DNA from: Methanosarcina sp. DH2 | Lineage (GTDB): Archaea; Halobacteriota; Methanosarcinia; Methanosarcinales; Methanosarcinaceae | DNA: 33,592 bases | Direction: 5' to 3' | Assembly: GCF_020804225.1 (NCBI RefSeq) | Contig: NZ_WJBI01000001.1 | Span: 735,000-768,591, forward strand | In this document: piece by piece, positions 1 to 26,601 of the stretch | Layout of the letters: each line of letters opens with the position of its first letter | Numbering within the stretch: the first letter of the stretch is position 1 | Program-made: the position numbers and the translations under genes | Notes under the pieces: model-generated | What the model was told of the DNA's origin: nothing | Database searches by the model: none | The model's input: only the letters and a program-made list of their open reading frames with translations

Positions 1-19
1 GTTCTCGATGTCAAGATAA

Positions 20-124
20 ACTCCTGTAATCTTTTCAGAAGACAGACCAGATAAACAAACTGAATCGCAATCGGATTTGCACAAAGAAATTGCCATAATA
101 GCTAAGAAAAGGTATCAAGAACCA
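20..124 (+). other. Possible 3' tail of an upstream gene (34 codons, no start)
   Basis: An open frame without a start codon runs from an in-frame TAA at 17-19 to a TAA at 122-124. Its translation ends in a hydrophilic, charged tail (...HKEIAIIAKKRYQEP) that looks like a protein C-terminus. The in-frame TAA just upstream means it would have to be a frameshifted or decayed end, or a chance frame. The family is not recognised. Bases 125-343 then hold only the leader of the permease gene. Confidence 0.2.
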
Positions 125-2322: not shown

Positions 2323-4830
2323 ATGTTTAGCAACACCCCGTTAAGAACAAAAATGATCGTTTATACCGTGCTCGGGGTTTTTCTAATCCTTACAGCTTCC
2401 ACAGCTGTGATCATTTCCACGGTTACAACGCAGGAAGAAAAGCTGGCTTACCAGCAGTCAGTTGAGATGGCTTCCAACTATGCAAATCAGTTCGATACGG
2501 ACATGAAAGCCAACCTTGTCATTGCAAGGACAATCTCCACTACGATGGAAAGTTATGAGACTGCAGACCGGGATGAAGCCCTCCTTATTCTGGAAAATCT
2601 GCTCCGTGACAACCCTCACCTCCTCGGGACCTATGTGGCTTTTGAACCCAATTCTTTTGACGGAAAAGACTCAGAATACATAAATGCGCCTGCTCATGAT
2701 AAAACTGGCAGGTTTGTTCCTTACTGGAATAAAATAAACGGGACTGCTTCAGTTTCCCCTCTTCTTCATTATAATACTTCGGATTACTACCAGCTCCCAA
2801 AGGCTACGAAAGGGGATGTGCTCACTGAACCCTATTTTTATGAAGGAATATTCATAGTGAGCTATGTTTCTCCAATCATTAAGGACGGAAATTTTGCAGG
2901 GATTGGAGGGGTTGATGTTTCCCTTGACTACGTGGACGAGGTAGCAAGCAGCATTCGGACTTTTGATACCGGATACGCTTTTATGGTAAGCAATACTGGA
3001 ATTCTTCTTTCCCATCCGACCCATAAGGACTGGATAGGGAAAAAGCACCTTTATGATTTTGAAGGGCAAGAAATCAAAAAAGCCGCCCTTGATATAAAAA
3101 ACGGAATTAGCGGGCGCCTTGAAACCAGGGATCCAGCCACAGGTAAAACCGTCATTATGTTTTACGAACCTGTTGAGACCGGAGACTTTTCTTTCGTGCT
3201 GGTTGTCCCTAAGGAAGAAATGCTTGCCGGGGTAACTGACCTTAGAGACCGGCTTCTTATAATTTCTGCAATTTCAATCCTGTTCATGGCTGCCCTTGCT
3301 TATATGATTGCAAGATCCGTAACAAAGCCAATTAACAGAATTGTTGATGACTTCAAGAGCATTGCCGAAGACGCGGTTAAAGGAGAACTCGGAGTAAGGG
3401 CTGATACGGATGTGGAAGTCGATTTCCGGGAAATCCCTAAGGGCTTAAATGAAATCCTGAATGCTGTGGTGATCCCTATCCGGGAAACCATGAGGGTGAC
3501 CAATGCCCTTGCAAAAGGGGAATTGAAGGAAAGGGTCAATGTGGATGTATATGGAGAATTCAGGGAACTTGAAGATACCCTTGATAAGTTTTCCGAGACC
3601 CTCAATATGATTATTGATGACTCAAATACTGTCCTTACGGCTTTTCAGCATAATAACTTCAAGAGGCCTATCCGGGTGCAGGGACAGGGAGATTTTAAAC
3701 TTCTCACGGATGGGATTGAAGAGACCCGCCTTGTTCTTGACAGGGTCACAACCCAGCGCAGAGAAGCAGAAAAAGCCTTAATTGAGTATGCGAGGAAGCT
3801 TGAGCACTCAAACAGGTTAAAAGAAGAGATGGAGCTCATAATTAATAACAGCCCTGTTATCGTTTTTTTGTGGAAATACGAGGAAGGCTGGCCAATAGAG
3901 TTTGTCTCGGAAAACGTTACAAGGCTCGGGTATGAAGTAGAGGACTTTACCTCAAGGAAAATCCTTTACGGGGACATAGTCCATCCGGAAGACATGGAAA
4001 AAGTTGAGGTCGAACTTGCAAGAAATGTGGGATCAGGCTGTGAAGATTATAGTTCCGAATATCGTATCCTTACCAGGTCAGGAGAATTCCGCTGGGTGGA
4101 TGAAAGGACTTTCATACAGAGGGACGAAAAAGGTGAGGTCCATCTGCAGGGTATTATCCTTGACATAACCGAGCACAAAAAGGCTGAAGAGGCTCTTTTG
4201 CAGATGGAAGAAATCCGCAAAAAAGAGATTCACCACAGGATAAAGAATAATCTTCAGGTAATCTCAACCCTGCTATACCTCGAGTCCGGAAATTTCAATG
4301 ATGAAAAAGTAATCGAGGCTTTCAAGGACAGCCAGCACAGGGTCAAGTCCATGGCTCTGGTCCACGAAAAGCTCTACCAGTCTGAAGATATGATAAGCGT
4401 GGACTTTGCAGACTACATCCAGAACCTTGCAAATTATCTTTTCGGGGCATATTCCGTAGGTGATAGAAATATCAGCCTGAGACTTGATGTTGATAATGTT
4501 TTCCTTGGCATGGATACGGCTGTTCCCCTGGGCATTATTATCAATGAACTTGTCTCAAACGCCCTTAAGCATGCTTTCTCAGAGGGGGAGAGCGGTGAGA
4601 TTTGTGTCTGCCTCAAAAAAGAAGAGAAAGGAAATTGTTTTTCTCTCATTGTCAGGGATAATGGCAGAGGCTTCCCTGAAGAAATCGATTTCAGAGAAAC
4701 TGATTCCCTGGGCTTGCAGCTTGTGATCACTCTTGTGGACCAGATTGAAGGAAGCATTGAACTTAATACGGGTGAGGGAACCGAATTCAGGATAAGATTC
4801 AGGGAATTGAAATACAGGCAGAAAATATAA
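2323..4830 (+). CDS. Membrane sensor histidine kinase HK1 (Cache-HAMP-PAS-HisKA_2-HATPase)
   Basis: Two-component sensor kinase of 835 residues. Domains in order: helix at about 11-32; extracytoplasmic double-Cache-like sensor at about 36-300 (motifs GRFVPYW, SDYYQLP, TEPYFYEG, GGVDVSLDYV); second helix at 310-331; HAMP and a second HAMP-like linker to about 440; PAS/PAC at about 503-617; HisKA_2 dimerisation/phosphoacceptor region with HHRIKNNLQV starting at residue 637; HATPase with N-box NELVSNALKH at 741, G1 box DNGRGFP at 779, then a GLQL motif. All key catalytic motifs are present. The start is set by GAGG at 2311-2314, 8 nt upstream. It ends with TAA and has no receiver gene behind it, so it may use the receivers at 12.1 or 13.5 kb. 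It is a close paralogue of the kinase at 9.45 kb. The Cache domain suggests a small extracellular ligand such as an amino acid, amine or carboxylate, but this is inference. Confidence 0.93.
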   Translation: MFSNTPLRTKMIVYTVLGVFLILTASTAVIISTVTTQEEKLAYQQSVEMASNYANQFDTDMKANLVIARTISTTMESYETADRDEALLILENLLRDNPHLLGTYVAFEPNSFDGKDSEYINAPAHDKTGRFVPYWNKINGTASVSPLLHYNTSDYYQLPKATKGDVLTEPYFYEGIFIVSYVSPIIKDGNFAGIGGVDVSLDYVDEVASSIRTFDTGYAFMVSNTGILLSHPTHKDWIGKKHLYDFEGQEIKKAALDIKNGISGRLETRDPATGKTVIMFYEPVETGDFSFVLVVPKEEMLAGVTDLRDRLLIISAISILFMAALAYMIARSVTKPINRIVDDFKSIAEDAVKGELGVRADTDVEVDFREIPKGLNEILNAVVIPIRETMRVTNALAKGELKERVNVDVYGEFRELEDTLDKFSETLNMIIDDSNTVLTAFQHNNFKRPIRVQGQGDFKLLTDGIEETRLVLDRVTTQRREAEKALIEYARKLEHSNRLKEEMELIINNSPVIVFLWKYEEGWPIEFVSENVTRLGYEVEDFTSRKILYGDIVHPEDMEKVEVELARNVGSGCEDYSSEYRILTRSGEFRWVDERTFIQRDEKGEVHLQGIILDITEHKKAEEALLQMEEIRKKEIHHRIKNNLQVISTLLYLESGNFNDEKVIEAFKDSQHRVKSMALVHEKLYQSEDMISVDFADYIQNLANYLFGAYSVGDRNISLRLDVDNVFLGMDTAVPLGIIINELVSNALKHAFSEGESGEICVCLKKEEKGNCFSLIVRDNGRGFPEEIDFRETDSLGLQLVITLVDQIEGSIELNTGEGTEFRIRFRELKYRQKI

Positions 4831-9366: not shown

Positions 9367-9451
9367 CAATATCATCGGTTTTTCAACACGATAGCCGCCG
9401 ACCCATGCTCAGTCTTTCCCCAAAAAACCTGATTTGCGGGAGTCCAGTACT

Positions 9452-12073
9452 ATGAGGTTAAAAAACGTCCCCCTGAAACCAAAGCTGGTTATTTTTATTG
9501 TTGTCGGAGTTTTTCTCATTCTTGCCGTATCTACAGCAGTTATAATCGGGACTGTGACCTCTCAGGAAGAGAAGCTTGCATATGAAAAATCCATTGAGAT
9601 GGCAGGTAACTATGCAAACCAGTTTGATGCTCAGATGAAGGCAAACCAGGCTGTTGCAAGAACACTTGCGTTTACCATGGCTGAATACAGGGTCGCAGAC
9701 AGGGAAGAGGCAATAGGTATTCTTGAAAACATCCTTAAAAATAATCCCACTTTAATCGGGGTTTATCTGGGTTATGAACCGAATGCCTTTGACGGCAGGG
9801 ATAGGGACTATGTTAATGCCTCAGGGCATGATTCAACAGGCAGGTTTGTCCCTTACTGCAACAAGATTGAAGGTCCTGTAGCAGTTGAGCCTCTTGTCCA
9901 TTATGATTCTTCTGACTATTACCAGTTGCCAAAAACTACTGGGAGAGACATCCTGACCGAACCCTACTTTTATGAAGGGATATTCATGGTGAGCTATGAC
10001 TCTCCTATTTTTAAAGAGGGGGAATTTGCAGGAATTGCCGGTGTGGATGTCCCGCTTGAGTATGTAGACGAGGTAGCAAGCAGCATTCGAACTTTTGATA
10101 CGGGATATGCTTTTATGGTAAGCAATACCGGCGTTTTTCTCTCTCATCCTGCGCAGAAAGGCTGGATCGGAAAGAAAAGTCTCTCGGATTTCAATGTTAA
10201 AGAAATCAAAAATGCCGCAGCTGATATCAGGCAGGGGGTCGGAGGGCACATTGAAGTCAAGGACCCGACTACAGGCAAAACCGTCATTATGTTTTACGAA
10301 CCTGTTGAGACCGGAGACTTTGCTTTCGTGCTGGTCGTCCCTAAGGAAGAAATGCTTGCCGGGGTAACTGACCTTAGAGATCGGCTTCTTATAATTTCTG
10401 CAATCTCAATTCTGTTCATGGCCGCTCTGGCCTATATGATCGCCAGATCCATCACAAAACCAATAGATGATATTGTTGATGACTTCAAGAACATTGCACA
10501 GGAGGCTGTCAAAGGCAAACTGGATGTAAGGGCAAATACCGACGTGGAAATCGATTTCAGGGAAATTCCAAACGGCCTGAACGAAATTCTTAGAGCCGTG
10601 ATCGTGCCTATCCGGGAAACCATAAGAGTAACCAACGCCCTTGCAAAAGGTGAATTGAAGGAAAGGGTAAATGTGGATGTGCAGGGAGAATTCAGGGAGC
10701 TTGGGGATACTCTGGACAAATTTTCCGAAACCCTCAACAGGATTATTGATGATTCTAATGCTGTTTTGACTGCTTTCCAGAACAATGATTTCAAGCGAGA
10801 GATCCTTGTTCACGGGCATGGGGATTTTAAACTTCTTACGGACGGGATTGAAGAGACACGCAGGGCTCTTGATCTTGTTACAACCCAGCGCAGGGAAGCA
10901 GAAAAAGCCCTGCTGGACTACGCAATGGAGCTGGAACGTTCCAACAAGCTTAAAGAAGAAATGGAACGAGTGATTAATAACAGTCCTGTGATCGTTTTTT
11001 TATGGAAATACGAACCCGGCTGGCCTGCAGAATTTGTTTCGGAAAATATTACACGGCTGGGGTATGAAGTAAAGGATTTTACCTCAAAGAAGGTTTTCTA
11101 CGAGGATATCGTCCACCCGGAAGACATCGAAAAGATGCACGAAGAACTTGCAAGAAATGTGGAATCAGGCTGTGAGGTCTATACCTCGGAATACCGGATC
11201 TTCACAAGGTCCGGGGAAGTCCGCTGGATGGATGAAAGGACTTTCATACAGAGAGACGAGAAAAACGAGATCCATTTGCAGGGCATTATCCTTGATATAA
11301 CTGAAAACAAGAAAGCTGAAGAAGTTCTGTTGCAGATCGAAGAAATCCGCAAAAAAGAAATTCATCACAGGATCAAAAATAACCTTCAGGTAATCTCAAC
11401 TCTGCTATACCTCGAGTCCGGGAGCTTCTCAGACACAAAAGTAATGGAAGCTTTCAAAGAGAGCCAGCACAGGGTCAAGTCCATGGCTCTTGTTCACGAA
11501 AAACTCTACCAGTCTGAAGATATGGTAAGCGTAGATTTCGCAGACTATATTCAGGACCTTTCCAGCTATCTCTTCCAGTCCTATTCAGTAGGAAATGGAA
11601 AAATCAGCCTGAGACTCGATGTTGATAACATTTTCCTTGGGATGGATACTGCTGTCCCTCTGGGTATTATAATCAATGAACTTGTTTCAAATGCCCTTAA
11701 ACATGCCTTTTCCAGAGGAGAGGACGGAGAAATCTGCATCCAGCTGCACAGGAACAGAAGAGGTTCTCGCTCAAAAAGAGAAAATTATAAAAATGCAGAA
11801 GGTCAAGTTGCTAAGTGCGAGAAAATCGATTGTAATGGAATTAACAGCAGCATACAGGGAAAAAATATGTTAGAGGACAGGCTGACCCTGATTGTCAGGG
11901 ACGATGGCAAAGGGTTCCCAAAATGCCTTGATTTCAGAAATACAGATTCTCTCGGGCTCCAGCTGGTGACCGCACTTGTTGATCAGATTAACGGGAGTAT
12001 AGAACTTGATACCAGCAGGGGAACCGAGTTTAAAATTATTTTTCAGGAGCTGAAGTACAAACCAGGGGTGTAA
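9452..12073 (+). CDS. Membrane sensor histidine kinase HK2, paralogue of HK1, paired with RR1
   Basis: Sensor kinase of 873 residues with the same layout as HK1: first helix, double-Cache-like sensor (GRFVPYC, SDYYQLP, TEPYFYEG, GVDVPLEYV), second helix near 311-332, HAMP region, PAS/PAC, HisKA_2 with HHRIKNNLQV starting at residue 638, HATPase with NELVSNALKH at 742 and DDGKGFP at 817. Between these last two boxes it carries about 37 extra residues, rich in Lys, Arg and Asn with two Cys, absent from HK1. A TTG at 9434 is in frame, but ATG 9452 is preferred: GGGAG at 9438-9442 lies 9 nt upstream and the N-terminus then aligns with HK1. RR1 starts 3 nt after its stop, so kinase and receiver are surely co-transcribed and form a cognate pair. 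Short stretches are almost identical in DNA to HK1, suggesting recent duplication or gene conversion. Confidence 0.93.
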   Translation: MRLKNVPLKPKLVIFIVVGVFLILAVSTAVIIGTVTSQEEKLAYEKSIEMAGNYANQFDAQMKANQAVARTLAFTMAEYRVADREEAIGILENILKNNPTLIGVYLGYEPNAFDGRDRDYVNASGHDSTGRFVPYCNKIEGPVAVEPLVHYDSSDYYQLPKTTGRDILTEPYFYEGIFMVSYDSPIFKEGEFAGIAGVDVPLEYVDEVASSIRTFDTGYAFMVSNTGVFLSHPAQKGWIGKKSLSDFNVKEIKNAAADIRQGVGGHIEVKDPTTGKTVIMFYEPVETGDFAFVLVVPKEEMLAGVTDLRDRLLIISAISILFMAALAYMIARSITKPIDDIVDDFKNIAQEAVKGKLDVRANTDVEIDFREIPNGLNEILRAVIVPIRETIRVTNALAKGELKERVNVDVQGEFRELGDTLDKFSETLNRIIDDSNAVLTAFQNNDFKREILVHGHGDFKLLTDGIEETRRALDLVTTQRREAEKALLDYAMELERSNKLKEEMERVINNSPVIVFLWKYEPGWPAEFVSENITRLGYEVKDFTSKKVFYEDIVHPEDIEKMHEELARNVESGCEVYTSEYRIFTRSGEVRWMDERTFIQRDEKNEIHLQGIILDITENKKAEEVLLQIEEIRKKEIHHRIKNNLQVISTLLYLESGSFSDTKVMEAFKESQHRVKSMALVHEKLYQSEDMVSVDFADYIQDLSSYLFQSYSVGNGKISLRLDVDNIFLGMDTAVPLGIIINELVSNALKHAFSRGEDGEICIQLHRNRRGSRSKRENYKNAEGQVAKCEKIDCNGINSSIQGKNMLEDRLTLIVRDDGKGFPKCLDFRNTDSLGLQLVTALVDQINGSIELDTSRGTEFKIIFQELKYKPGV

Positions 12074-12076
12074 GTA

Positions 12077-12505
12077 ATGGCAGAAGGACGAATTCTGATA
12101 GTAGAAGATGAACATATCGTTGCGATGGGAATAAAGCGCATGTTGAAGGGCCTGGGATATACGGTTACGGGTGTTGCTTCATCCGGAGAGGACGCTATAA
12201 ACAAAACGGAAAGTACCTTTCCCGACCTTGTGCTTATGGACATAATGCTAAAAGGGGAACTTGACGGTGTGGAAGCTGCAAAAGAAATTAGAGAACGATT
12301 TGATGTGCCTGTGGTCTATCTAACTGCTTATTCCGACAGCAGTATTCTTGAACGGGTTAAAATTACCGGTCCGTTTGGCTATATTGTAAAACCTTTTGAT
12401 GAAAAAGACCTGCACAGCAACATAGAAATAGCCCTGCACAGGTACAGGAAAGAAAAAGAAAATCCCGAAGAAGGAAATGAAGAGGAAAAACAGGCTGAAA
12501 AATAG
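12077..12505 (+). CDS. Single-domain response regulator RR1 (CheY-like receiver)
   Basis: A 142-residue receiver. Acidic pair E10/D11, phosphoacceptor D55 in VLMDIML, T83 in VVYLTAYSD and K105 in GYIVKPFDEKD are all present, so it should be phosphorylated by a kinase such as HK2, 3 nt upstream. After about residue 125 there is only a charged Glu/Lys-rich tail and no DNA-binding domain, so output must go through protein contact, possibly with the FilR1-like regulator (inference). GGGGTG about 10 nt upstream, inside the kinase's last codons, implies translational coupling. The stop is UAG, unusual for Methanosarcina-type genomes; readthrough would add the UAG-encoded residue plus nine more before TAA at 12533. 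Confidence 0.92.
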   Translation: MAEGRILIVEDEHIVAMGIKRMLKGLGYTVTGVASSGEDAINKTESTFPDLVLMDIMLKGELDGVEAAKEIRERFDVPVVYLTAYSDSSILERVKITGPFGYIVKPFDEKDLHSNIEIALHRYRKEKENPEEGNEEEKQAEK

Positions 12506-13486: not shown

Positions 13487-13993
13487 ATGCCAGAAGGGCG
13501 AATTCTTATTGTCGAAGACGAACATATTGTTGCGATGGGAATAAAACGGATGTTAAAGAGTTTGGGATATACACTGGTAGGCGTCGCTTCATCCGGAGAG
13601 GATGCCATAAACAAAACGGAAAGTACCTTTCCCGACCTCGTGCTTATGGACATAATGCTAAAAGGGGATATGAACGGGATAGAAGCTGCAAAAGAGATAA
13701 AAACCCGCTTTGATGTGCCTGTGGTTTACCTGACCGCCTGTTCAGAAAGCAAAATAGTGGAGCGTGCCTGGAAGACAGAACCTCTGGGGTATATTGTAAA
13801 ACCTTTTGATGAGAAGGACCTGCAAAAAGGTATTGACGTAGCTCTATGCAGGCACAGGGTAGAAAAACATGAGCTTGAAAACGGCTTTAATTATGCTGAA
13901 AAATATTTCGAAAAATCTGAGGAATCCATCGAAAAATGCGAAAAAGATCCTCGAAAACTTCCTGGATCTGTTGAGTGCACTGAAAGTCTTTAG
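13487..13993 (+). CDS. Single-domain response regulator RR2, paralogue of RR1
   Basis: A 168-residue receiver with E10/D11, D55 in VLMDIML, T83 in VVYLTACSE and K105 in GYIVKPFDEKD. It is almost the same as RR1 over residues 1-80, with very high DNA identity around codons 40-60, and diverges afterwards: the 40-residue tail is Glu/Lys-rich and unlike RR1. No output domain is seen. ATG 13487 is chosen by alignment with RR1. Its own kinase appears lost (relic upstream), so HK1 or HK2 probably phosphorylates it (inference). The stop is UAG, with TAA two codons later, so readthrough would hardly change the protein. Confidence 0.9.
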   Translation: MPEGRILIVEDEHIVAMGIKRMLKSLGYTLVGVASSGEDAINKTESTFPDLVLMDIMLKGDMNGIEAAKEIKTRFDVPVVYLTACSESKIVERAWKTEPLGYIVKPFDEKDLQKGIDVALCRHRVEKHELENGFNYAEKYFEKSEESIEKCEKDPRKLPGSVECTESL

Positions 13994-19798: not shown

Positions 19799-22279
19799 TT
19801 AATTGAAATAGTTGGAAAGAAGACTGATAAATGCGTTAAACAAATTAATAATATTTTCACTATATACAGTCACGATTACTCCAATAACAGCTGTAAGAAT
19901 AACTAATATCAAAGTATTAATGTATTTGATGATTAGTTTGAGCATATTCACTGTTTTTATCAGAAACTTTTTTAGAGCTGATGGCTCAGACTCTGGAAGT
20001 GTAAAACATGGAGTAATAGTTCCATCCCATGTTTTTATTTGTTCTCTATGTATGTCCATCTGTTCAGCGGAACTGTATAATATTTTTTGAAGAGGACCCT
20101 CAATATTATTAGTAACCTCTATTAGCTCCATAATACATTCCTCAACAGCCTTCTCGTCTAAAAACATAGCGTCTTCTTTATATTTTTTAAGATTTTGCAT
20201 ACAATCTATAGCCTTATATAAAGAATCAACAAATAATTCTCCTTTATTATTTCCAATGTAGACTTCGTGAGAGTAACTTAATTTGTTTTTCCATATAGGC
20301 ACTTTATTATCTAGATCTGTAAAAGTTCTCTTTTCAATTATTGCTCTCATACAATCAAGCATATCTGCAAAAACCGACATTGAAACGAAACAAGCATTAC
20401 AGATTTTGTTTTCTTCTGTGGATGCTTCAGCGGCCTTTTTGTAGAACTCTGCTGCCTCCTGTATACCATTTATAATTTTCTTAAAATTTTCACTATCAGA
20501 ACTATTATTAGGATAAATTGTATAAAGAACAATTTTTCTAACTCTAGCTTTTCCTTTCTTTATATATCCTAAAGTTAGTAACTCCCCCTCTGACCCCTCT
20601 CCTGACTGTTTGCCGGCTTCAATATATTCGTCGCCTGAGATATCGGTATATTTCCAACATTTTGAATTAGTTTCCTCAATATTATATTTTTGTGCCAACT
20701 GATAGTATTTATTTGCCAGTGCATCATAAATTATTGCTCGAGTTATATGCTCATAAAAATTATTTCCACTTTCTGCAAATAAGCGAGCGGCTTTTTCCAT
20801 TTCTTTTTTAACTTTTCTATCTGAAATCCTAGGTAAATGCAAGATCGTAAGACTATATAAAAAACGAATGTCTGCATAATTAGGGTCATATTTTAAGAAG
20901 TTTTTACAATGTTTCGCGGCTTCTTTTAGTCGATCCATATCATAAAGGATATGGGCGTAATTGTAATTTAGCTCTCTATTTTTCGAATCATTGGCTAAAA
21001 GTATTTTGTAGTGTTTTTCAGCCTCTTCAAACCGATTCCTCGTATTAAGAAGATTGACATAATTTGCATGAGTAGTTAAATTTTGAGGATCAATATTTAA
21101 GGCAATTTTGTAATGTTCTTCTGCTTGGTCTATTCGACCCGTTCTATCTAGTAAATATCCATAATTGTTGTGGTTTATTGAGTTTTGAGGATCAATCTCT
21201 AAAGCAATCTTGTAGTGCTCTTCAGCTTCTTCGAGCATACCCATTTTATCAAGAAGAATTGCATAACTCGAGTGGGCTGCTAAATTTTTGGAATCAAATA
21301 CCAAAGCAAGCTTGTACTCCCTCTCTGCCTCTTCTTTTCGGTCATTTTCATAAAGGAATTGTCCATAATAATAATGGAGATCTGAACTTCGAGGATCAAT
21401 TTCTAAAGCAGTTTTAAATTCGTTTTCAGCTTCCTTTGGACGATTCATCTTATCTAGCATAAATCCATAATCATAATGAATCGCATTTTGGAATTTACTA
21501 TGATTATCAACTTTAAAATGTAAACCACGATAATTATAGTTTGAATTTTCGGGGTCAATTTCTAAAGCGATCTTAAATTCTTTTTCTGCCTCTTCCAACC
21601 GACCCAAACCATCGAGGAGAATACCATAATTGTAATGAATAGCTGCACATTTTGGGTTAGACATCAAAGCAAGCTTGTGTTGCTTTTCAGCCTCATTTAC
21701 TCTATCTAGTTTGTAAAGGATAACTCCATAATTTGAGTGGATCACTGGATTTTGAGGATCAATTTCTAGGGCTTTCTTATACTGCTCTTCAGCATCCTCT
21801 AGTCGGTTCATTTTATCGAGAAGAGTTCCATAATTCACATAAGCAGTAAGGTCAGTAGAATTGGCTAACAAAGCAAGTTTGTACTCTCTTTCTGCCTCCT
21901 CTAGACGATTCGTTTTTTGAAGTAAAAATCCATAATTTGTGTGAGTAGCCGCATTTTTTGGGTCAATTTCTAAAGCGATCTTAAATTCTTTTTCGGCTTC
22001 CTCTGGATGCCCTAATCTATAAAGAAGGCGTCCGTAATTTATGCGAGTAGCTACACGTCGGGGATCGAGATCTAAAGAACTCTTAAGCTCTTCACCTGCT
22101 TCTTCTAACTGACCCATAACCTCAAGGAAGTATCCATAGCTTGCGTGAAGAGCTGCATTCTTGGGGTCAGCCAACAAGTCAAGCTTATATTGTTCATCGA
22201 CTTTTTCTGAGAGAATACTTCCAGCAATAAGAATTATATTATTTAACTGAGTGGATAAATTTTCAGGATCAGGCTTCAT
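19799..22279 (-). CDS. Large TPR-repeat protein with a C-terminal membrane anchor
   Basis: An 826-residue scaffold-type protein. Residues about 37-500 hold roughly 13 tetratricopeptide repeats, each 34 residues, of the form NYGxLLdkmnRleEAExxYKxALeiDPqN. One unit around residues 240-265 is degenerate (GLHFKVDNHSK). Residues 500-760 form a helical, non-repetitive region. A hydrophobic helix near 783-805 (INTLILVILTAVIGVIVTVY) lies close to the C-terminus, so the TPR face should be cytoplasmic with a tail anchor. There is no clear Shine-Dalgarno before ATG 22279. The upstream region is packed with TTTAC/GTAAA motifs. Many repeats are close copies of each other, indicating growth by internal duplication. 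Partner and function are unknown; TPRs generally bind peptides or proteins. Confidence 0.88.
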   Translation of the reverse strand: MKPDPENLSTQLNNIILIAGSILSEKVDEQYKLDLLADPKNAALHASYGYFLEVMGQLEEAGEELKSSLDLDPRRVATRINYGRLLYRLGHPEEAEKEFKIALEIDPKNAATHTNYGFLLQKTNRLEEAEREYKLALLANSTDLTAYVNYGTLLDKMNRLEDAEEQYKKALEIDPQNPVIHSNYGVILYKLDRVNEAEKQHKLALMSNPKCAAIHYNYGILLDGLGRLEEAEKEFKIALEIDPENSNYNYRGLHFKVDNHSKFQNAIHYDYGFMLDKMNRPKEAENEFKTALEIDPRSSDLHYYYGQFLYENDRKEEAEREYKLALVFDSKNLAAHSSYAILLDKMGMLEEAEEHYKIALEIDPQNSINHNNYGYLLDRTGRIDQAEEHYKIALNIDPQNLTTHANYVNLLNTRNRFEEAEKHYKILLANDSKNRELNYNYAHILYDMDRLKEAAKHCKNFLKYDPNYADIRFLYSLTILHLPRISDRKVKKEMEKAARLFAESGNNFYEHITRAIIYDALANKYYQLAQKYNIEETNSKCWKYTDISGDEYIEAGKQSGEGSEGELLTLGYIKKGKARVRKIVLYTIYPNNSSDSENFKKIINGIQEAAEFYKKAAEASTEENKICNACFVSMSVFADMLDCMRAIIEKRTFTDLDNKVPIWKNKLSYSHEVYIGNNKGELFVDSLYKAIDCMQNLKKYKEDAMFLDEKAVEECIMELIEVTNNIEGPLQKILYSSAEQMDIHREQIKTWDGTITPCFTLPESEPSALKKFLIKTVNMLKLIIKYINTLILVILTAVIGVIVTVYSENIINLFNAFISLLSNYFN

Positions 22280-23256: not shown

Positions 23257-24303
23257 ATGAAAAAGCGGGGCAAAGCATATCCAATCGTTTTAGCTTCAAC
23301 AGCTTTTCTCTTACTTTTAATTATTTTTTCATTTACGGAGTCAACACCCAATGTACAAAGTAATTTATCTGCTGCGTATGCATATGTGCCGAATGAAAAA
23401 AGTAACGATGTCTCTGTAATTAATATAACAACTGACACCTTTATAGCAAATATATCTGTAGGAGCTAACCCTGCTGGAGTTGCAGTCAGTCCTGATGGAA
23501 AAAAAGTATATGTAACGAACGAGGAAAGTAACAATATCTCTATAATTGATACATCAAACTATAGTAATATTACAAGTGTGTCTGTACAAATGTATCCTTT
23601 AGGGGTTGCAATTACACCTGATGGAAAAAAGGTATATGTAGCAAACTACTACAGCAAAAGTGTCTCCGTAATTGATGCCTCAAATTACAGTGTTAACAAT
23701 GTATCTGTAGGGGCCCATCCGATTGAAGTTGCAATCACACCTGATGGGTCAAAGGTATATGTGGCAAACTCCGGCGAGGCAACTGTTTCTGTAATTAACA
23801 CAGCAACAAACGCTCCTATAAAGAAGATAGACGTAGTAACTGATCCTTACGGAGTTGCAGTCACACCTGATGGAACACAGGTATATGTGACAGGTCTAAG
23901 CACCAGTACTGTTTATGTAATTGACACGATAACAGATACTATTATAGGCTCACCAATAGTAGTAGGAAAGTATCCTCGCGGAGTCGCCTTTACGCCTGAT
24001 GGAACGAAAGCATTTGTAGCAAACCACGAGAATCCTGGCGGCAGCATCTCTGTGATAAATGCCATAACAAATACTGTTACAGATACCGTTGAGAATGTAG
24101 GAAACTATCCTTGTGGAGTTGCAGTCACACCTGATGGAAAAAAGGTATATGTGACGAACTCAGGCAGTAACAATATCTGTGTAATTGATACCAAAACAAA
24201 CGAAGTAATAAATAATAACATAGATGTAAAAGGATATGGTCCTGCTGGCTTAGGTCAGTTCATAGGTCCTCTTCCAGAGCCCCCACAGAATAGTTCCACC
24301 TAG
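23257..24303 (+). CDS. YVTN-family seven-bladed beta-propeller surface protein (ends at UAG)
   Basis: A secreted or surface protein of 348 residues. A basic N-terminus and hydrophobic helix at about 9-27 (PIVLASTAFLLLLIIFSF) form a signal peptide or anchor. Residues 40-335 contain seven repeats of about 42 residues, each with a P-x-G-V/E-V-A-x-(S/T)-P-D-G core followed by KVYV(T/A)N-type and SVI(D/N)-type strands, as in the YVTN propellers of Methanosarcina surface layer proteins. The protein then has a Pro/Ser/Thr linker and stops at UAG 24301-24303. No PGF-type sorting signal is present before the stop. The frame stays open for 47 more codons and encodes a transmembrane helix (see the next entry). 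ATG 23257 has only a weak AGGGA upstream. It probably works at the cell surface in adhesion or envelope structure. Confidence 0.88.
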   Translation: MKKRGKAYPIVLASTAFLLLLIIFSFTESTPNVQSNLSAAYAYVPNEKSNDVSVINITTDTFIANISVGANPAGVAVSPDGKKVYVTNEESNNISIIDTSNYSNITSVSVQMYPLGVAITPDGKKVYVANYYSKSVSVIDASNYSVNNVSVGAHPIEVAITPDGSKVYVANSGEATVSVINTATNAPIKKIDVVTDPYGVAVTPDGTQVYVTGLSTSTVYVIDTITDTIIGSPIVVGKYPRGVAFTPDGTKAFVANHENPGGSISVINAITNTVTDTVENVGNYPCGVAVTPDGKKVYVTNSGSNNICVIDTKTNEVINNNIDVKGYGPAGLGQFIGPLPEPPQNSST

Positions 24304-24447
24304 AGATTACTCTATAAATATATTAGCCTTACATGGTATTTTATCAATAATCTTATTATCCCGTATATTCGTGAGATTATCAGTGGATTAATTGTATCCG
24401 TTCTAATAGCCGTAATAATGAAGAGATATTCCAAAACATTCAAATGA
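24301..24447 (+). other. In-frame extension past UAG: membrane anchor of the YVTN protein
   Basis: After UAG 24301 the same frame runs 47 codons to TGA 24445-24447. It encodes RLLYKYISLTWYF, then a hydrophobic helix IISGLIVSVLIAVIM, then a basic end KRYSKTFK. Extracellular propeller, linker, helix and positive inner tail is a sensible topology, so this stretch was or is coding. In Methanosarcina UAG can be decoded as pyrrolysine; the full product would have 396 residues with the UAG residue at 349. The alternative is a recent nonsense mutation that releases the propeller from the membrane. Confidence 0.65.
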
Positions 24448-25152: not shown

Positions 25153-26601
25153 TTAATCTACGAAAAGAAAATTTTCGAATTGCCACGGATCGGAATTATG
25201 TTCCACGGCTGGATTTTCTTTGAAAAATATTTTGCGATTTTTAAGCGGTGTCCAGTCCGATGGTGTGGAAATAAATTTTCCAAGATACGGTCTGGCAATA
25301 TCCAGGATAAAATCATGAGGCAGGTCCTCAGGTGTTTTAATACCTTCTCGCGGATTTTCAAGCATCCAGAGTACAGCAGCAACAATGCCTGCAGCTACCT
25401 GAAGGGTGGTAGCATTTTGACCGGGAGCGAGGGATCTGGCTTCCTCAATGCTCAATGAGCTCCCGGTCCACCAGGAATTATAAGAATGGCCCATCAAGAG
25501 TGCTCCCATTATATCCTTTCCAGATGTGACTTCATCTGTCATAATCCTGAGTCTGGGTTGAAGATCATAATTCCGGCCTCGCAATTCGCAAAGAGAGGAA
25601 AGTGTATCATTACAGGGCATATAAGCATAATGTACGGTAGGCCGATAGATCGCCTTGCCATCTTCCCAAATAGTTAACAGTTGTGAAAGGCCATATGCTT
25701 CGCCATGACGGATCGCCATACCTACAATTTCTTCATCTGGTATCCACGATCTGACCCATGTATTAATGCCCATCTGGGGCAAGAAAATCATATTTTTCGG
25801 TTCACAAGGAGGCATATGCGCCAGGGGCGGCAATTTGCTCTCATGCGTTCCCCAACCTATTTCAACCGGAGCTATTCCTTCTTCCCTCAATCCTTCAATG
25901 CTCCATGTCCCTACAAATTCATTAACCTCCTTTGGTCGGTTAGAAATTTGAGTATCTCGCTCGCTACAATGGATCACTTTAATTCCCAGTTTCTTAGCCA
26001 GGCGGGCAAAATCCTTGTTTTTCGCAAGGAGGCAAATTTCCTTTTCATCCTCAGGAGAGACTTTCTTATCAGCACAGGTGCGCGTGGCAATATCCAGCAG
26101 GGCTTGCTTTACGAAGTGAGATATCAAGCCAGGATTTGCGCCATGGTCAATAACAGCAGTTGGTGCATCTTTCCAATCACGGGAAAGTTCAACCAATTCC
26201 ATTTGCCGTAAATAAAGCGATTTTTCTAATAGACTTTGAGTCAGAAATCCCTTCGTAGGATCCCATACTTCAACCGAAGTATTAAGGTACAATACTTTGT
26301 GATCATGGCACCACTTAATGATATCATTAGCAGCGATATTCCACGCCAGATCAATGAGCAAGCCCTCATTTTCCAGATATTGTGACAAAACTTGATCTAA
26401 ATTTTCCGGGGTAATTTTTTCACAGACATATCTTAACCCTTGATCAGTATATTTTTTCAGAGCTTTTGATTTGTCTTCAAAATCAATTAAGGTAATGTTT
26501 TCTAGCGGAACATCGAGTTTGTCCATTAAAAGGGGTAGGGTGCATTGTGAAACTGAGCCATAACCGATAATGAGGATTTTATTGGAAAATTTTTTTTTCA
26601 T
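25153..26601 (-). CDS. hss: Homospermidine synthase
   Basis: Cytoplasmic NAD-dependent enzyme that condenses two putrescines (or putrescine and spermidine) into sym-homospermidine. The 482-residue length fits the family (about 470-480). The N-terminus has the Rossmann motif ILIIGYGSVSQCTLPLL (glycines 13 and 15). Further family-like segments are DLAWNIAANDIIKWCHDH, LYLNTSVEVWDP, AVIDHGANPGLISHF and, toward the C-terminus, MGHSYNSWWTGSSLSIEEAR. The related saccharopine reductase fold is the main alternative, but these segments favour homospermidine synthase. The start at ATG 26601 has a GGAAG about 10 nt upstream. It stands alone. Methanosarcina species are reported to contain homospermidine, so a genuine polyamine role is plausible; the family is mostly bacterial, which would fit an old transfer (inference). 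Confidence 0.9.
   Translation of the reverse strand: MKKKFSNKILIIGYGSVSQCTLPLLMDKLDVPLENITLIDFEDKSKALKKYTDQGLRYVCEKITPENLDQVLSQYLENEGLLIDLAWNIAANDIIKWCHDHKVLYLNTSVEVWDPTKGFLTQSLLEKSLYLRQMELVELSRDWKDAPTAVIDHGANPGLISHFVKQALLDIATRTCADKKVSPEDEKEICLLAKNKDFARLAKKLGIKVIHCSERDTQISNRPKEVNEFVGTWSIEGLREEGIAPVEIGWGTHESKLPPLAHMPPCEPKNMIFLPQMGINTWVRSWIPDEEIVGMAIRHGEAYGLSQLLTIWEDGKAIYRPTVHYAYMPCNDTLSSLCELRGRNYDLQPRLRIMTDEVTSGKDIMGALLMGHSYNSWWTGSSLSIEEARSLAPGQNATTLQVAAGIVAAVLWMLENPREGIKTPEDLPHDFILDIARPYLGKFISTPSDWTPLKNRKIFFKENPAVEHNSDPWQFENFLFVD

What the first reader, a model, noticed from the sequence alone, without database searches (positions are those of the whole stretch)
23257..24447. YVTN propeller with an in-frame UAG separating it from a membrane anchor
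The UAG at 24301 is followed, in the same frame, by 47 codons that encode a hydrophobic helix and a basic tail, then TGA. The topology of the full product is coherent (outside propeller, linker, helix, positive inside). In pyrrolysine-using methanogens UAG is often read through, so this gene could make both a secreted and an anchored form, or a pyrrolysine-containing surface protein. A fresh nonsense mutation is the plain alternative.
Basis: partly seen in the sequence, partly recalled or inferred. Interest (0 to 1): 0.78.

Follow-up and report, generated by a model that had tools for sequence, protein, structure and literature searches.

The report
Amber codon before a membrane anchor
In a Methanosarcina that can insert pyrrolysine at UAG, a surface beta-propeller gene has picked up a UAG just before its inherited membrane anchor, so the cell probably makes a mostly anchor-less protein plus a little anchored, pyrrolysine-containing one; whether this is useful or just a tolerated mutation is open.

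Summary
A 348-codon YVTN propeller gene (23257-24300) ends in UAG (24301-24303), followed in frame by 47 codons (hydrophobic helix, basic end) and TGA. The tail is inherited coding sequence: the gene falls in a well-supported clade (100/98) of eight Methanosarcina proteins, and all six other complete members run in one open frame into a C-terminal transmembrane helix with a basic end. The two relatives with the same short linker have Arg where this gene has UAG. A profile of their tails ranks this tail above every other post-stop extension tested. The genome has complete pylTSBCD, and mtmB and mtbB with the classic in-frame UAG. UAG ends only 3.4% of called genes. Published reporter work in M. 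acetivorans gives 20-30% pyrrolysine readthrough of an introduced UAG, so a mix of truncated and anchored product is expected. I found no sign that it is programmed or selected: no clade relative has the UAG, no stimulatory RNA fold is evident, and stops of all three kinds interrupt other family members sporadically. Most likely this is a species-specific amber mutation at the domain/anchor joint, partly suppressed by tRNA-Pyl: a new instance of a known phenomenon (compare Thg1 in M. acetivorans).

The parts
23257..24303 (+). Open reading frame up to UAG: N-terminal hydrophobic helix, YVTN propeller, short linker (348 codons)
   Evidence: TIGR02276 E=3.6e-77; PF21783 and PF10282 above cutoff
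23284..23331 (+). N-terminal hydrophobic helix (residues 10-25), signal peptide or uncleaved N-terminal anchor
   Evidence: helix 10-25 in the model, low confidence; cleavage not tested
23377..24225 (+). Beta-propeller, residues 41-323, complete before the UAG
   Evidence: AlphaFold model, pLDDT mostly above 90, 27 strands; seven YVTN-type repeats counted in the sequence
24301..24303 (+). In-frame UAG (codon 349); Arg in the same column of L007 and L060
24304..24447 (+). 47-codon in-frame tail plus TGA: inherited C-terminal anchor
   Evidence: homology to tails of clade relatives; helix 346-395 in the model
24367..24420 (+). Transmembrane core of the tail (residues 371-388)
   Evidence: hydropathy maximum 2.08 over 19 residues; boundaries judged from the sequence
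24421..24444 (+). Basic end KRYSKTFK (residues 389-396), positive-inside
   Evidence: similar basic ends in L004, L006, L059, L061

Best explanation
The gene descends from an uninterrupted ancestor coding for an N-terminal signal or helix, a seven-bladed propeller, a short linker, and a C-terminal transmembrane anchor with a basic cytoplasmic end. In this species a linker codon became UAG. Because the cell has tRNA-Pyl (CUA) and the enzymes to make and charge pyrrolysine, the UAG is ambiguous: release factor ends most chains, giving a complete propeller without the C-terminal anchor, and a minority are read through with pyrrolysine at residue 349, restoring the anchored form. Shown: the tail's ancestry, the complete pyl set in this genome, and a propeller that is complete before the UAG. 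Inferred: that readthrough happens on this mRNA, its level, and where the short form goes. Not shown: any benefit or regulation.
For: Clade of eight (100/98) in which all six other complete members have an in-frame C-terminal transmembrane helix and basic end. Tail homology tests. Arg at the UAG column of L007 and L060. tRNA-Pyl, PylS, PylB, PylC, PylD present. mtmB and mtbB with in-frame UAG. UAG is 3.4% of called stops against 18.8% of intergenic stop triplets. 20-30% readthrough of an introduced UAG in M. acetivorans and the Thg1 precedent (PMC2933860).
Against: No expression, ribosome or peptide data. Codon usage gives no positive coding signal for the tail. No relative closer than about 55-57% identity and no syntenic orthologue, so continued constraint on the tail after the UAG arose cannot be measured.
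Confidence: 0.6

Rival explanations
1. Plain nonsense mutation: the UAG ends the protein for practical purposes, the anchor is lost, the tail is a recent relic, and any suppression is noise without consequence, or the gene is on its way to a pseudogene.
For: UAG is unique to this species. In-frame stops occur sporadically elsewhere in this family, with UAA and UGA as well as UAG. Family members that end directly after the propeller exist (L017, L072, L083). Tail codon score is neutral.
Against: The UAG is the only lesion, at a joint between domains, with 47 clean codons and a recognisable anchor after it. In a cell with pyl genes some readthrough is expected for any UAG (PMC2933860).
Confidence: 0.27
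2. Selected dual-product or regulated switch: UAG is kept because it yields a released and an anchored form, with the ratio set by pyrrolysine supply, so by methylamine metabolism.
For: UAG lies exactly between a finished propeller and the anchor helix. The pyl set is present and the organism has methylamine methyltransferases.
Against: No relative has a stop at this joint. No stimulatory fold after the UAG (z = 0.34). UAGs in other family members sit inside propeller blades, where no such switch makes sense.
Confidence: 0.08
3. Sequencing or assembly error at one base; the real gene codes for the anchored protein without interruption.
For: Draft assembly of 37 contigs; a single base change can create UAG.
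Against: Assembly is 99.92% complete with 1.04% contamination, with no N or frameshift in the gene. Reads were not available.
Confidence: 0.05

Closest known systems
Thg1 of Methanosarcina acetivorans (PMC2933860)
   Same: Gene in a Pyl-decoding Methanosarcina that acquired a UAG in one species only; relatives have a sense codon; pyrrolysine not expected to be essential.
   Different: In Thg1 pyrrolysine was observed physically. Here the UAG lies at the joint to a membrane anchor, so termination leaves a complete domain, and translation past it is untested.
Methylamine methyltransferases MtmB, MtbB, MttB
   Same: In-frame UAG in a pyl-bearing genome, with coding sequence on both sides; mtmB and mtbB of this genome have it.
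   Different: There the UAG is conserved in the family and pyrrolysine is in the active site; here it is unique to one species and in a linker.
Anchored YVTN propellers of Methanosarcina (L004, L006, L007, L059, L060, L061)
   Same: Propeller of the same clade and a homologous C-terminal anchor with basic end.
   Different: Uninterrupted reading frame; four have an extra domain before the anchor (Big_3_5 Ig in L004).

Membership tests
Pyrrolysine-containing protein | Genome encodes tRNA-Pyl and PylSBCD | tested here: met
   tRNA-Pyl (cta) in L054; PylS, PylB, PylC, PylD all above curated cutoffs
Pyrrolysine-containing protein | Homologous coding sequence continues in frame after UAG | tested here: met
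   Tail homologous to the C-termini of clade relatives
Pyrrolysine-containing protein | UAG position conserved in the family | tested here: not met
   No clade member has a UAG there; Arg in L007 and L060
Pyrrolysine-containing protein | Pyrrolysine present at the UAG position in the protein | not testable with these tools
   Needs mass spectrometry
Programmed stop-codon readthrough with a cis element | Stable or conserved RNA structure after the stop | tested here: not met
   100 nt after the UAG: -12.5 kcal/mol, z = 0.34 against shuffles. Reported not to be essential for Pyl insertion in any case (PMC2933860)
YVTN beta-propeller repeat proteins (TIGR02276) | Profile match over repeats | tested here: met
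   E = 3.6e-77, 254 bits against a cutoff of 27.85
Pseudogene | Several lesions or loss of coding constraint | tested here: inconclusive
   UAG is the only lesion; no relative close enough for a substitution-rate test

The most novel reading that the evidence does not exclude
A natural switch in which pyrrolysine supply (methylamine growth) decides how much of a surface propeller stays tethered to the membrane and how much is released, with pyrrolysine displayed on an extracellular protein.
Probability: 0.07. Interest if true: 0.85.

Novelty: new member of a known kind. Interest (0 to 1): 0.42.

Why it matters
It is a clean natural test of what an ambiguous UAG does to an ordinary gene in a Pyl-decoding archaeon: the tail is inherited, losing it changes localisation rather than folding, and the two products can be told apart by size or fractionation. 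If both forms are made, Pyl suppression would be shown to give protein isoforms outside methylamine metabolism. If not, it shows how well such a cell keeps ordinary UAGs as stops.

Tried and rejected
A search with the 47-aa tail alone in 60 relatives finds nothing at E <= 0.001, and only chance-level hits at E <= 10: it is too short and divergent, so the propeller was used to find relatives and their C-termini were read. The first family search used a wrong accession (PF00995, Sec1) and means nothing. Synteny: the neighbouring gene 25153-26601 is conserved at 84-89% in 17 other genomes, but none of the 15 flanks examined (some cut by contig ends) holds this propeller; one (L192) holds a different propeller without this anchor. 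A scan of GTDB contigs gave only more distant relatives. Separate translation of the tail was rejected: no start codon before its codon 39. A PYLIS-like structure was not found. The terminator scan was uninformative. Coding-potential scores do not discriminate for hydrophobic helices. UAG enrichment among interrupted family members: with a single stop I count 3 UAG, 4 UAA and 1 UGA in the listed rows, so no enrichment is claimed.

Full report
Observation. The reading frame that starts at ATG 23257 meets TAG at 24301-24303 and continues for 47 sense codons to TGA at 24445-24447. The first part is a YVTN beta-propeller protein (TIGR02276, E = 3.6e-77; PF21783 and PF10282 above cutoff). An AlphaFold model made from the window protein (Lys in place of the UAG residue) and four relatives has mean pLDDT 86. 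It shows an N-terminal helix 10-25, a propeller from residue 41 to 323 (seven YVTN-type repeats in the sequence, so seven blades), and a continuous helix 346-395. The UAG, residue 349, therefore lies after a finished domain and at the start of the anchor helix.

Is the tail more than chance? Mere openness is not. In 1.54 Mb of the same genome, 117 of 844 called genes have an in-frame extension of 40 or more codons, and 20 of the 844 also have a hydrophobic stretch there. Codon usage in the tail is neutral. The decisive evidence is descent. Homologues were collected from 30 other genomes of the genus and their C-termini read. In a tree of 49 propellers the window gene sits in a clade of eight (support 100/98) and more narrowly in one of six (99/88). 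One member (L003) is cut by its contig end. The other six all end in a transmembrane helix followed by basic residues, in one uninterrupted frame. Four of them (L004, L006, L059, L061) have an extra domain before the anchor, identified as Ig-like Big_3_5 in L004 (E = 1.3e-20). Two (L007, L060) have, like the window gene, only a short linker. Most of the other proteins in the tree end in other ways, although a few have a different kind of C-terminal anchor (L018, L019, L023).

The window tail aligns with the L004 C-terminus (IIPYIREIISGLIVSVLIAVIMKRYS against IIEFIIAVISGIIVTLIGILAQKRLS). That score is reached by none of 1000 segment-preserving shuffles and by none of 93 real hydrophobic C-termini of this genome. 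A profile of the clade's tails ranks the window tail above all 494 other post-stop extensions, and above all (four-tail profile) or all but one (six-tail profile) of 1551 ORF C-termini. Similarity to L006, L059, L007 and L060 taken singly is weaker. In L007 and L060 the column of the UAG, ungapped from the motif LGQFIG, is Arg (CGT, AGG). So the ancestor most likely had a sense codon and an anchor, and this species has a UAG.

Can the UAG be read? The genome carries tRNA-Pyl (CUA), PylS, PylB, PylC and PylD in one cluster. Near it, mtmB has its classic in-frame UAG. Two mtbB-type genes also continue in frame through UAG; one of them (TIGR02368, 1010 bits when read through) ends at window position 54. 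UAG ends 3.4% of called genes against 18.8% of stop triplets in intergenic DNA. According to a review (PMC2933860), UAG serves as both stop and sense in such archaea. An E. [quoted passage not shown] acetivorans, and Thg1 of M. acetivorans is a species-specific UAG gene whose pyrrolysine was seen but is not needed. By inference the window gene should give mostly anchor-less propeller and a minority of anchored, pyrrolysine-containing protein, if it is expressed.

Is it programmed or useful? No support was found. No clade relative has the UAG. The 100 nt after it fold no better than shuffled sequence (z = 0.34). No syntenic orthologue was found and the nearest relative is about 55-57% identical, so neither age nor selection can be measured. 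In-frame stops of all three kinds occur sporadically elsewhere in this large family. In G028 a UAG stands where the sister G029 has Trp in an otherwise intact propeller, and G010 has another UAG inside a propeller. This looks like drift in a fast-evolving family, with UAG perhaps better tolerated because it is partly suppressed. The N-terminal helix may or may not be cleaved, so the short form could be secreted or still tethered by its N-terminus.

Conclusion. 'Two forms by amber suppression' is the most likely mechanism. 'Pyrrolysine surface protein by design' is not supported. This is a new instance of a known phenomenon.

Noticed in passing
window 1-54 and G000:C25:733650-735053: The window begins inside the 3' end of a dimethylamine methyltransferase gene (mtbB, TIGR02368) with its in-frame UAG; the next gene, 257-1789, is an APC-family permease (below-cutoff match to a trimethylamine N-oxide permease model), so probably a methylamine permease.
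   Followed up: partly
L204 (G028:C2:3797500-3801500), L205 (G029) and L206 (G010:C82:31500-34500): Other YVTN propellers of the genus carry single in-frame UAGs: in G028 a UAG replaces the Trp of its sister G029 in an otherwise intact gene, and in G010 a UAG follows a YVTNL motif. A count of UAG against UAA and UGA interruptions in this family across strains would test whether UAG is better tolerated.
   Followed up: partly
window 2323-4830, 9434-12073, 12077-12505, 13487-13993: Two similar large proteins with histidine-kinase-like C-termini and two nearly alike response regulators suggest a duplicated signalling cassette.
   Followed up: no
window 19799-22279 (-): Long TPR protein that ends in a C-terminal hydrophobic helix of its own.
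   Followed up: no
window 25153-26601 (-): Saccharopine-dehydrogenase-like protein (PF03435/PF16653) conserved at 84-89% in 17 other genomes of the genus, while none of the flanks examined carries the window's propeller gene.
   Followed up: partly
L007 (C-terminus): The clade relative in G007 ends in UAG after its anchor, with 23 further in-frame codons, so it too could get a short extension by amber suppression.
   Followed up: no
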